From NCBI RefSeq assembly GCF_014199265.1, contig NZ_JACIJG010000006.1, positions 62,001 to 126,000 of the forward strand: 64,000 bases of DNA, given 5' to 3'. The notes beneath the pieces are model-generated. The model ran no database searches. It had not been told where the DNA came from and was given only the letters and a program-made list of their open reading frames with translations. This document shows positions 13,510-24,687 of the stretch, piece after piece; within the stretch, counting starts at the first letter, position 1; each line of letters begins with the position of its first letter. The position numbers and the translations under genes were made by a program. This DNA comes from Brucella daejeonensis. Lineage in GTDB: Bacteria > Pseudomonadota > Alphaproteobacteria > Rhizobiales > Rhizobiaceae.

Positions 13510-13759
13510 TCGCTCTCATGGTACCGAATTTGTCGCACAGCTAATATCAGTCGTTTTTCAGCGGTGCAACATATAGGCGTTCTTGCGGCTCTCCGCAGTT
13601 TTGGCTTCGGATAGCCCGCTAAAAAAATCCGGGTTCCACCCTTGAACTCGGCAACACCATACACACTTGAAGAAATGCAGCGCCGGGCCCCTCTGGTCAT
13701 GGTTTCCGCTATGACGATGTCGGAGCTGCTCCACTTGTTCAATTGGAGATGGTCCGGCG

Positions 13760-22333: not shown

Positions 22334-22443
22334 AGAAAAGCCCGCTGCGCGGGGCGCTGCGGGCTTAAACTGAAAGCGCGGTTTGGGAGGAGGAGTACCG
22401 CGCTCATGTCCGGTTTTTTGGGAGGAGGAGTAAAACCGAACGA
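22334..22443 (-). ncRNA. Anti-Shine-Dalgarno sRNA, cuckoo/alpha-r14-like (copy B)
   Basis: On the minus strand two hairpins display the same loop: TTCGGTTTT stem with loop ACTCCTCCTCCCA (22419-22431), then AGCGCGGT/ACCGCGCT stem with loop ACTCCTCCTCCCAA (22383-22396). A terminator stem AAGCCCGC/GCGGGCTT (22338-22366) with TTTTCTG ends it. Loops with CCUCCUCCC are the hallmark of the alphaproteobacterial cuckoo and alpha-r14 RNAs, which pair with ribosome-binding sites. A possible promoter, TTGAGG-17-TAGTTA, lies at 22449-22477. Confidence 0.75.
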
Positions 22444-22519
22444 TTTGTTAACTACGCCACTATCACCGGCCCCTCAACCGGTAAGCTTGCAATGCTGATA
22501 TGCAGTTTTAGCAAACCAG

Positions 22520-22640
22520 AAGGAAAAACCGCCTCGCTGCGACCAAGCGCGCTGAGGCGGCGAATCTCCTTCGAAAGCCCCCAATCGGAGGAGACGCCGA
22601 AACATACCTACAACCTGGGAAAAATAAATAGACAATCTTA
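22520..22640 (-). ncRNA. Candidate sRNA next to copy B (copy C)
   Basis: On the minus strand a hairpin pairs CTCCT with AGGAG (about 22565-22600), followed by a terminator whose stem CCGCCTC/GAGGCGG (22529-22560) is followed by five T residues (22524-22528). The 5' end is a guess. The terminator and the bases after it resemble those of the plus-strand sRNA at 22860-22976, so the two look like duplicates in opposite orientation. Confidence 0.5.
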
Positions 22641-22859
22641 GCGAGCAGCAAGTTTTTTTAAACGACAATGACGACAGCCGCTCATGGCGACTTTTGGAGC
22701 GGGCTTTAACAGCTCGCTGAATTGTAAAGTTTGGCTTTCCGCAACACGGCCCGGCCCGGATACCCACATCGAAAGCATTGCGTGCCGAAATTCGCCCCGC
22801 AATGGCCCGAAAAGAACCTCGTCATTTCATGTTGAATTTTCAGTAATTTCTGAAAATAA

Positions 22860-22976
22860 TGGAGTTATATTAGGTGTTGCTTTCTCCATGCGCCACGTTA
22901 TTGTGGCCTCACTTGGAGGAGGGAGTACCGCCCCAGCGCGCTCGATCGCTGCGGGGCGGTTTCTTTTTTCAGCTAC
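22860..22976 (+). ncRNA. Candidate sRNA with an exposed SD-like GGAGGAGGGAG (copy D)
   Basis: Two stems, ATGGAG/CTCCAT and GCCAC/GTGGC, are followed by GGAGGAGGGAGTA (about 22916-22928) and a strong terminator: CCGCCCCAGCG paired with CGCTGCGGGGCGG, then TTTCTTTTTT. The terminator is closely similar to that of copy C on the other strand. The purine-rich stretch could pair with the CCUCCUCC loops of the adjacent sRNA. The 5' end is uncertain. Confidence 0.5.
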
Positions 22977-23039
22977 CCATAAATGCATATCTGCCTTGCG
23001 CCATTGCCTCTTGTAAGCAGCAATGTCCGAACCTATCTT

Positions 23040-23167
23040 CGCGTTGTTCGGTTTTACTCCTCCTCCCAAAAACCGAACCAGAAGCGCGATACTCCTCCTC
23101 CCAAATCGCGCTTTACAGATCAGCCCACTGCACACTCCTCCTCCCAGTGCAGTGGGCGTTCTTTTTT
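23040..23167 (+). ncRNA. Anti-Shine-Dalgarno sRNA with three identical loops, cuckoo/alpha-r14-like (copy A)
   Basis: Three consecutive perfect hairpins each present ACTCCTCCTCCCA: stem GTTCGGTTTT/AAAACCGAAC (23046-23078), stem AAGCGCGAT/ATCGCGCTT (23082-23113) and stem GCCCACTGCAC/GTGCAGTGGGC (23123-23157). The third doubles as the terminator and is followed by GTTCTTTTTT (23158-23167). The stems differ completely while the loops are nearly invariant, so selection is on the exposed anti-Shine-Dalgarno loop. The 5' end is placed just before the first stem. Confidence 0.82.
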
Positions 23168-23235: not shown

Positions 23236-24687
23236 TCAGGATCTGCCGCCGGTCAATCCGATGACCCTGAAAGCAACGGCTACGGCAATGGCAGGCGCAA
23301 GCGCGAAGATCACCGAGAGCCAGAGCGAGGCATTGGCCGCGCCTTCCGCACCGCCGGGCACGGCGATACCTGCAAAGTTGGCGACCATACCGGCACAGGC
23401 CGTACCGAAGGCAATGGCGAAAAGCTGCACGGTGGTCATGCCGCCAGCGGCAAGATCCTGCTCGGTCGGCGGCGCGCTCTGGTAGACCCGCGTGACGAGG
23501 CTCGGCCAGGCAAGCCCGATACCGAAACCGATCAGGATCAGTCCGAAGCAGACCGGTGCGAGGAGCGACCAGTTGCCATTGCCATGGACCGGCAGGAACA
23601 CGGCAAGGAGGACGAGACCGGCAAGTGTCAGGACAGGCCCGGCCACAACCAGCCTGTCACCGCCTCTTTCCTGCCATCTGGAGCTCAGGAAGGATGCGAC
23701 CGTCCAGCCGATTGCCATCAGGGCGGCGAGATAACCGGCCCGGAGCGGGGACTGCCCATGAAGATGCTGAAGCAGATAGGGCACATAGATTTCCGGCTGC
23801 ATGGAAAGCATCAGGAGCGCAATCGTCAGATAGAGCGCGCCGAGCGGTGTCGAAAGATTGAAGGAACGGCGCGGCAGAAGCCGCGCCTTCGCATTGCGAT
23901 CAACAGCCGCGATGATGGCGATCATGAAGAGCGCGGCACCGAGGCCGACAATTTTCCACAATGCTTCCTGCGACAGGCTGCCAGCCGAAACGGCAAGCAC
24001 GGCGCCGGTCAGGAGGACGAGTTGAAGAACGGGAATGGAAGCCCGCTCGTTCCTGTCCCAGCTCGAACGCGGCAGGGTCACGAAAGCGACGACCGCAAAA
24101 AGCCCCGCCACAGGCAGCAGCGACCAGAAGGCCGCACGCCAAGCGCCATATCCGGCGAAAACGCCGCCGATGGCCGGACCTATCAGCGTTGCAACGCCGA
24201 ACATCGCGGAAATCAGCCCGATGGCCCGTCCCCACAGGCGTTCCGGCAGCACGACGCGCGTCAGCCCGTAGGCCAGCGCATAAAGGAAGCCGCCGCCAAG
24301 CCCCTGCACGCTGCGCCCGGCGAGCATGACCGGCATATTGATCGCAAGCGAAGAAATCAGGGTTCCGGCCGCGAACAAGAGCGTCGCCGCCACATAGGCG
24401 CCGCGTGGACCGGCGCTTATGAGCAGCCGCGCAGTGAGCGCCGCGCCCAGAATGGACGAAACAACGAAAAGCGTGGTCGCCCAGGCATAAAAATCCATGC
24501 CGCCAATATCCTGAACCACACTCGGCATGACCGTGGTGGCAATATACATATTGACCGCGTGGAGCGTGACGCCACCGGCCAGAGCCAGCGCATAAAGGCC
24601 GTTTCGGCCACTCAACAGTTCACTCCAGCCAGCGGGCGCATGGCCCGCATTCCCCGCCGGAACCGTCTCTTCGATCGAACTTTGCAC
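23236..24687 (-). CDS. MFS multidrug efflux transporter under SoxR control
   Basis: A 483-residue major-facilitator protein with 12-14 hydrophobic segments and a family-typical GRSVQGLGGG segment in the first half. The start is a GTG at 24687, six bases after GGAGG. It is preceded by a SoxR box inside a promoter with a 19-bp spacer. In bacteria without soxS, SoxR directly activates efflux pumps and redox genes, so export of redox-active compounds is the likely role. Confidence 0.85.
   Translation of the reverse strand: MQSSIEETVPAGNAGHAPAGWSELLSGRNGLYALALAGGVTLHAVNMYIATTVMPSVVQDIGGMDFYAWATTLFVVSSILGAALTARLLISAGPRGAYVAATLLFAAGTLISSLAINMPVMLAGRSVQGLGGGFLYALAYGLTRVVLPERLWGRAIGLISAMFGVATLIGPAIGGVFAGYGAWRAAFWSLLPVAGLFAVVAFVTLPRSSWDRNERASIPVLQLVLLTGAVLAVSAGSLSQEALWKIVGLGAALFMIAIIAAVDRNAKARLLPRRSFNLSTPLGALYLTIALLMLSMQPEIYVPYLLQHLHGQSPLRAGYLAALMAIGWTVASFLSSRWQERGGDRLVVAGPVLTLAGLVLLAVFLPVHGNGNWSLLAPVCFGLILIGFGIGLAWPSLVTRVYQSAPPTEQDLAAGGMTTVQLFAIAFGTACAGMVANFAGIAVPGGAEGAANASLWLSVIFALAPAIAVAVAFRVIGLTGGRS

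What the first reader, a model, noticed from the sequence alone, without database searches (positions are those of the whole stretch)
22334..23167. Head-to-head duplicated two-sRNA cassette with invariant anti-Shine-Dalgarno loops
Two sRNAs, one per strand, display loops ACTCCTCCTCCCA(A): three times in the plus-strand RNA (23040-23167) and twice in the minus-strand RNA (22334-22443). The stems are unrelated while the loops are identical. Each is preceded by another sRNA-like unit (minus 22520-22640, plus 22860-22976), and these two share a near-identical terminator and the sequence after it (TGCATATC-type). The locus is therefore an inverted duplication of a two-gene cassette around about 22,750. 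Anti-SD RNAs of the cuckoo/alpha-r14 type are known; this symmetric paired arrangement appears notable.
Basis: partly seen in the sequence, partly recalled or inferred. Interest (0 to 1): 0.85.

Follow-up and report, generated by a model that had tools for sequence, protein, structure and literature searches.

The report
Paired anti-ribosome-site RNAs with candidate sponge
Two copies of a known kind of small RNA that blocks ribosome-binding sites sit head to head, each behind a second small RNA; one of these second RNAs looks undescribed, carries the switch of a respiratory-oxidase regulator, and may soak up the first kind.

Summary
Both outer RNAs pass Rfam's ar14 (cuckoo/NfeR1) threshold (78.4 and 69.5 bits), with three and two CCUCCUCCC loops. 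The halves are homologous (local score 97; best of 300 shuffles 30) and head to head in 11 of 35 genus genomes. Each arm has its own history, so a local inverted duplication is not shown. The shared TGCATATC is not part of the inner RNAs: it is a VtlR/LsrB-like promoter box of ar14.

The inner units are the new part. The right one (X, about 22872-22968) matches no Rfam family. It occurs in 29 of 35 genus genomes, beside ar14 in 28. It keeps ACUUGGAGGA; the copies tested match ar14 loops over 8-11 nt. Its promoter has TTTCAGTAATTTCTGAAA, 17/18 identical to the core of a footprinted site of CydE, a cytochrome bd repressor. The same dyad precedes a MarR-type regulator-cydD pair and, with mismatches, cyoA and a SCO gene.

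Best reading: X is a CydE-type-regulon sRNA that titrates ar14-type RNAs, as CrfA does SisA-D in Caulobacter. Conservation and operator are well supported. The sponge step is inferred; its energy is unremarkable in the window itself. The left X shows no significant complementarity.

The parts
23039..23162 (+). Right ar14 anti-SD sRNA, three ASD hairpin loops, terminator
   Evidence: Rfam RF02344 78.4 bits; alignment; loops open
22335..22448 (-). Left ar14 anti-SD sRNA, two ASD loops, third hairpin without the motif
   Evidence: Rfam RF02344 69.5 bits; 7 of 9 relatives have three loops here
22872..22968 (+). Right X: candidate sRNA with UUGCUUU, UUAUU, ACUUGGAGGAG and a strong terminator (ends estimated)
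   Evidence: Alignment of 22 genomes; model R1 in 29 of 35 genus genomes
22911..22921 (+). SD-like motif ACTTGGAGGAG of right X, complementary to the ar14 loops
   Evidence: First ten bases invariant in 22 of 22 aligned copies; 8-nt Watson-Crick match in the window, reached by 7 of 200 shuffles
22838..22855 (.). Dyad TTTCAGTAATTTCTGAAA in the right X promoter, predicted operator of a CydE-type repressor
   Evidence: footprinted CydE site in PMC6096048 (passages)
22984..22998 (+). VtlR/LsrB-like LysR box of the right ar14 promoter
   Evidence: 12 of 15 positions of the reported VtlR motif, 3 of 2000 shuffles (motif from PMC12595884)
23010..23039 (+). Core promoter of right ar14, CTTGTAA-N17-TATCTT (by eye)
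   Evidence: compared with the NfeR1 core CTTAGAC-N17-CTATAT in PMC10746234
22521..22617 (-). Left X: related inner unit with UUGGGGGCUU and a similar terminator (ends estimated)
   Evidence: R1 37.2 bits; R2 95.8 bits, but this copy is in R2's training set
22490..22504 (-). VtlR/LsrB-like LysR box of the left ar14 promoter
   Evidence: 12 of 15 positions, 5 of 2000 shuffles

Best explanation
The locus holds two related cassettes head to head next to minC. Each is an inner sRNA gene (X) with its own terminator, followed on the same strand by an ar14 anti-SD sRNA gene with its own promoter and a LysR-type box. ar14 RNAs act by pairing their CCUCCUCCC loops to ribosome-binding regions (reported for NfeR1 of Sinorhizobium; inferred here). 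Right X is transcribed when a CydE-type (GbsR/MarR) repressor leaves the TTTCAG-N6-CTGAAA operator, together with the regulator-cydD genes and probably cyoA and a SCO gene. X then offers ACUUGGAGGAG, which pairs with the ar14 loops and titrates or destabilises ar14 RNAs (and perhaps the ar15/AbcR-type RNA), lifting their repression while the cell changes its terminal oxidase. Supported by sequence: ar14 identity, X conservation, operator match, promoter boxes, complementarity. Inferred: transcription, repressor binding, pairing in the cell, direction of the effect. The left X is a related unit with unknown pairing partner.
For: X in 29 of 35 genus genomes, 28 of 29 directly upstream of ar14 on the same strand. 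ACUUGGAGGA invariant in 22 of 22. Watson-Crick match to the ar14 loop 8-11 nt in 12 of 12 right copies tested (of 22), reached by 0-15 of 200 shuffles; 7-9 nt in 10 of 10 third-type copies, 0-2 of 200; for the 16S tail 5-6 nt and 24-128 of 200 in the right copies. Window right X beats 300 of 300 shuffles against the loop core when unfolding is ignored. ar14 loops fully open. Dyad with at most one mismatch in front of 28 of 29 right X; same dyad before regulator-cydD, cyoA, SCO; CydE footprint 17 of 18 identical in its core. Tested precedent: CrfA sponge of SisA-D (PMC12559287 passages).
Against: With unfolding cost the window X gains -5.5 kcal/mol and 12 of 40 shuffles do as well; only 9 of 19 finished right copies had at most 3 of 40, and G054 had 27 of 40. 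If G-U pairs are allowed, the window X matches the 16S tail over 9 nt too (6 of 200 shuffles; ar14 9 nt, 5 of 200), so an SD-like role is not excluded; three third-type copies also match 16S over 9 nt with 0-4 of 200. Left and b types show no significant complementarity (26-147 of 200, 15 copies). G333 has X without ar14 beside it, G004 and G309 the right ar14 without X. No transcript evidence.
Confidence: 0.42

Rival explanations
1. X is an independent trans-acting sRNA of the oxidase regulon that pairs with mRNAs through its other conserved patches (UUGCUUU, UUAUU); nearness to ar14 is inherited and the SD-like motif serves something else.
For: These patches are as invariant as the SD-like motif; X stands without ar14 in G333 and seven distant R1 matches have no ar14 beside them; net pairing energy with ar14 is modest.
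Against: The SD-like motif is kept in all 22 aligned copies and a third X type carries another purine motif that also fits the ar14 loop; 28 of 29 right X keep ar14 beside them.
Confidence: 0.3
2. X is a leader of ar14: transcription from the X promoter reads through its terminator into ar14, and the motif tunes the read-through.
For: Same strand, usually about 70-140 nt between the X and ar14 matches.
Against: ar14 has its own promoter box and core promoter; the X terminator is strong and invariant; in G016 extra DNA lies between the two; X persists without ar14 in G333.
Confidence: 0.1
3. Two ar14 copies with ordinary upstream terminators; no link between the units (a plain form of the first reader's reading).
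For: The left X and left ar14 are wearing down in some genomes; the left X shows no significant complementarity.
Against: X body, not only its terminator, is conserved across the genus, with a dedicated dyad.
Confidence: 0.12
4. X is an mRNA for a small peptide, with GGAGGAG as its ribosome site.
For: SD-like sequence; an ATG-led frame crosses the window copy.
Against: No ATG, GTG or TTG follows the motif at usual distance in the window copy or, by eye, in the other aligned copies; the upstream ATG is not kept; a terminator follows at once.
Confidence: 0.05

Closest known systems
ar14 / cuckoo / NfeR1 anti-SD sRNAs (Rfam RF02344)
   Same: The outer RNAs score over the family threshold, have hairpins with CCUCCUCCC loops and a LysR-type promoter box (NfeR1 in PMC10746234, passages)
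   Different: Head-to-head pair, each behind an X unit; the left copy has two ASD loops instead of three
CcsR RNAs with DUF1127 genes (Rhodobacter; RF02791)
   Same: Anti-SD loops of the same motif; two other ar14 genes of this genome follow DUF1127 genes (65.2 and 57.4 bits; positions)
   Different: No DUF1127 gene found in the window pair; CcsR1 scores 25.5 and 24.5 bits, below its cut-off of 65.3
CrfA sponge of the SisA-D (alphaR8) sRNAs, Caulobacter
   Same: A G/A-rich stretch complementary to a conserved pyrimidine-rich core shared by sibling sRNAs (PMC12559287, passages)
   Different: Partner family is ar14 instead of alphaR8; X lies beside its presumed partner; homology of X and CrfA was not tested by direct comparison
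CydE / CioR cytochrome bd repressor regulons
   Same: MarR-type regulator gene before a cyd gene, with an operator core 17 of 18 identical to a CydE footprint; CioR is a second GbsR-type case
   Different: Here the site also precedes an sRNA gene, cyoA and SCO; the regulator-cydD pair stands in place of cydE-cydAB; binding untested

Membership tests
ar14 (RF02344) | Covariance score over the gathering threshold | tested here: met
   78.4 and 69.5 bits against 58.8
ar14 (RF02344) | Three hairpins each with CCUCCUCCC in the loop | tested here: met
   Right copy three of three
ar14 (RF02344), left copy | Three hairpins each with CCUCCUCCC in the loop | tested here: not met
   Two of three; still over the family score
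ar14/NfeR1 regulation | LsrB/VtlR-type box upstream of a sigma-70-type promoter | tested here: met
   12 of 15 positions in both copies, 3 and 5 of 2000 shuffles; binding itself not testable; a third ar14 promoter (L003) is not significant (220 of 2000)
CcsR1 (RF02791) | Score over the gathering threshold | tested here: not met
   25.5 and 24.5 bits against 65.3
Any Rfam family, for X | Match at E up to 5 covering X | tested here: not met
   No match in 22872-22968 plus or 22521-22617 minus, apart from one to SOX2OT_exon3 at 8.8 bits that touches 22956-22968 on the other strand
sRNA sponge (CrfA-like) | Complementarity to the active site of sibling sRNAs beyond chance | tested here: inconclusive
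   Watson-Crick match significant; net energy not significant in the window (12 of 40)
sRNA sponge (CrfA-like) | Pairing and loss of partner activity in the cell | not testable with these tools
   No expression or ligation data
CydE-type regulon | Operator like the footprinted CydE site | tested here: met
   TTTCAGTAATTTCTGAAA against TTTCAGAAATTTCTGAAA
CydE-type regulon | GbsR-type regulator beside cytochrome bd genes | tested here: inconclusive
   MarR_2 30.7 bits (cut-off 27) before a CydD-like gene (TIGR02857 239.8 bits on a 297-aa piece, cut-off 435); nearest NCBIfam model CudC 44.9 bits, below its cut-off 218; similarity to CydE itself not measured

The most novel reading that the evidence does not exclude
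A cytochrome bd-type repressor (CydE class) controls a dedicated sponge RNA encoded immediately upstream of an anti-Shine-Dalgarno sRNA, so that a switch of terminal oxidase also frees mRNAs held by the cell's ar14/AbcR-type translational repressors; other X types with other promoters would feed other signals into the same pool.
Probability: 0.33. Interest if true: 0.8.

Novelty: new variant of a known kind. Interest (0 to 1): 0.6.

Why it matters
Anti-SD sRNAs are widespread in Alphaproteobacteria, with many near-identical loops per genome, and how they are switched off is little known. A conserved neighbouring RNA complementary to these loops, under the operator of a respiratory regulator, would be a concrete off-switch and would tie respiration to translational control. 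It would also put an sRNA into a cytochrome bd regulon; the passages that I saw on CydE and CioR name none.

Tried and rejected
Rejected: X as a known RNA family. Rejected: TGCATATC as part of the inner unit. Rejected as precedent: StsR as a sponge of cuckoo RNAs; the passages seen of PMC8307010 give UpsM and rpoE as its targets and an indirect effect on CcsR. Left open: inverted duplication or joining of older cassettes; the tree keeps left, b and most right-type ar14 apart but does not order them, and its bootstrap had not settled. Weak result: pairing energy with unfolding cost, stopped by time-out after 19 of 22 right copies and before any left copy. No base pair of the X consensus structure shows a change on both sides, so structure is not supported by covariation. 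The family-wide DNA search (22 of 297 genomes) gave outside the genus only short ar14, dyad or terminator matches. Literature searched for an earlier description: (no paper with Brucella, ar14 and sRNA); X appeared in none of the listings, but only open-licence papers are held, listings are capped, and the cuckoo-family paper is not held.

Full report
WHAT IS THERE. Two outward-pointing anti-Shine-Dalgarno sRNA genes. Plus 23039-23162 matches Rfam ar14 with 78.4 bits, minus 22448-22335 with 69.5; the gathering score is 58.8. The plus RNA has the loop ACUCCUCCUCCCA three times, the minus RNA twice; all five are predicted open. The own genome has six ar14 matches at E of 4.1e-9 or better, five over the cut-off. 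The next match (L007, 24.5 bits for ar14) is an ar15 RNA, 76.2 bits against a cut-off of 40; that ar15 is the AbcR family is recalled. Two of the other ar14 genes (L001, L002) follow DUF1127 genes (65.2 and 57.4 bits). All 35 genus genomes searched have ar14, three to eight copies each.

THE TWO HALVES. They are related beyond chance: local score 97 against a best of 30 in 300 shuffles; without the ar14 parts 49 against a best of 28 in 500. The head-to-head layout occurs in 11 of 35 genus genomes: the window's own and nine others seen beside minC, and G336 by match coordinates (its neighbours not read). In a tree of 46 ar14 rows with promoters, the nine left copies form one group (support 96/90; one group in 100% of 200 bootstrap trees) apart from the 24 right copies; the degenerate left copy of G015 was left out, and the bootstrap had not settled. 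So each arm has been inherited as such. In G016, G017 and G022 a related cassette ('b') lies about 23 kb from the right one on the same strand. The layout may come from an inverted duplication or from bringing two older cassettes together. The left arm is wearing down in places: the window's left ar14 has two ASD loops; 7 of 9 relatives have three exact CTCCTCCC, G012 and G015 two.

PROMOTERS OF ar14. TGCATATCTGCCTTG (22984-22998) and TGCATATCAGCATTG (22504-22490, minus) match 12 of 15 positions of the motif reported for the LysR regulator VtlR; 3 and 5 of 2000 shuffles do as well (motif from PMC12595884, passages). The ar15 gene has the motif exactly (15 of 15), while the ar14 promoter in L003 has 10 of 15, which 220 of 2000 shuffles reach. 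NfeR1, the ar14 RNA of Sinorhizobium meliloti, is activated by the LysR regulator LsrB upstream of a CTTAGAC-N17-CTATAT core (PMC10746234, passages); the right copy here has CTTGTAA-N17-TATCTT (by eye).

THE RIGHT INNER UNIT, X. Aligned over 22 genomes, X keeps UUGCUUU, UUAUU, ACUUGGAGGA and the terminator while the stretches between vary. No consensus pair shows a change on both sides, so its structure rests on the terminator alone. A covariance model (R1) finds X at 94 bits or more in 29 of 35 genus genomes. In 28 of the 29 an ar14 match follows on the same strand (read from the tables); G333 has none there. The six genomes without a strong match are G004, G013, G014, G309, G335 and G341; G004 and G309 keep the right-type ar14. 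The same scan gave 32 weaker rows (24.1-48.7 bits): 25 lie beside ar14 by coordinates or sequence and 7 do not. In a sample of 297 genomes of the family R1 matched 6: five of the six genus members drawn, and one other genus by the terminator only (stricter filters, weak matches may be lost). An exact core pattern matched 21 named contigs, titled Brucella (13), Ochrobactrum (6) or 'Rhizobiales bacterium' (2).

OPERATOR. The X promoter has the dyad TTTCAGTAATTTCTGAAA (22838-22855). The own genome has two perfect copies: X, and a gene for a MarR-type regulator directly before a cydD-like gene. Two-mismatch copies lie 46 bp before cyoA and 152 bp before a SCO1/SenC gene (165 bits; distances). Over 35 genus genomes 34 have a site with at most one mismatch; the reversed-pattern control gave one match in each of two genomes. 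Such a site stands before 28 of the 29 right X; G019 has two mismatches. Of the sites whose surroundings were fetched, most precede the regulator-cydD pair, X, SCO or cyoA; L160, L170, L173, L176 and the two-mismatch L064 could not be assigned. In five loci of other genera or relatives found by the dyad (L048, L051, L052, L053, L062) it precedes the same regulator-cydD pair. CydE of Alishewanella, a GbsR-type repressor of cytochrome bd, protects TATTTCAGAAATTTCTGAAAGTTCA (PMC6096048, passages); its 18-base core differs from the X dyad at one base. CioR of Chromobacterium is a second such repressor (PMC11837568, passages).

COMPLEMENTARITY. The longest Watson-Crick match of X (terminator removed) to an ar14 loop is 8-11 nt in 12 of 12 right copies tested (of 22), reached by 0-15 of 200 shuffles (7 in the window); to the 16S tail it is 5-6 nt, reached by 24-128 of 200. 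Ten of ten third-type copies, from other ar14 loci of the genus, have 7-9 nt, reached by 0-2 of 200. Fifteen left and b copies have 5-7 nt, reached by 26-147 of 200. Seven stand-alone relatives have 4-7 nt, reached by 3-200 of 200. With G-U pairs the picture blurs: the window X then matches both ar14 (5 of 200) and 16S (6 of 200) over 9 nt (all). Without unfolding cost the window right X beats 300 of 300 shuffles against the loop core, 12 of 300 equal it against a longer loop, and 46 of 300 against 16S. With unfolding cost it gains -5.5 kcal/mol and 12 of 40 shuffles do as well; of 19 right copies finished, 9 had at most 3 of 40, the worst (G054) 27 of 40; the ar14 loop beat the 16S tail in 18 of 19. 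The case rests on conservation and specificity more than on energy.

THE LEFT INNER UNIT. R1, built from right copies only, finds the left X of the own genome at 37.2 bits (E 3.2e-5); R2, built from left and b copies, finds the right X at 28.7 bits (E 0.0011). They are related, largely through the terminator. Of 15 left and b copies, 12 have exactly TTGGGGGCTT (G001, G010 and G015 vary), and 12 fold it into a hairpin loop in the minimum-energy structure, but not the window's, G001's or G015's (by eye). I saw no CydE-type dyad before the left X; the own-genome search with up to two mismatches lists none there.

HOW IT MAY WORK. ar14 RNAs would be made under LysR-type control and block ribosome sites. 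X would be made when the CydE-type repressor lets go, and titrate ar14. The closest tested precedent is CrfA, which sponges four sibling sRNAs in Caulobacter through a G/A-rich loop (PMC12559287, passages). That X acts on mRNAs through its other invariant patches is a serious rival.

LIMITS. No expression data. Adjacency counts were read from tables, the ar14 table was capped. E-values of R1 and R2 are rough.

Noticed in passing
L111, L113, L114 (own genome); L165-L169 in relatives: The CydE-type dyad precedes the regulator-cydD pair, cyoA and a SCO1/SenC gene: a likely terminal-oxidase regulon in this genus.
   Followed up: partly
L231-L237: Seven stand-alone relatives of X without ar14 beside them (GGGGTTTACTTTTTT... 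or near it at the 5' end, terminator of the same type) in G004, G016, G017, G339 and three times in G340.
   Followed up: partly
L076, L078, L239, L242 and others: A third X type before other ar14 genes, with UUGGGAGGA-like motifs; in several copies an inverted repeat ATAATCATAC...GTATGATTAT lies upstream, so another regulator may act there.
   Followed up: no
window 22683-22699: Near the centre of the inverted layout lies a copy of an interspersed repeat (CATGGCGACTTTTGGAG): 46 places in the own genome with up to two mismatches, reversed-pattern control 3. A similar stretch lies between X and ar14 in G016.
   Followed up: partly
window 13675-13732: terC RNA (RF03067), 53.9 bits against a cut-off of 39.9.
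   Followed up: no
L002 2333-2417: Glycine riboswitch (RF00504), 60.8 bits, near a DUF1127-ar14 locus.
   Followed up: no
window 23236-24687: MFS transporter gene (PF07690, 136.5 bits) on the minus strand right beside the right ar14; best NCBIfam models all below their cut-offs.
   Followed up: no
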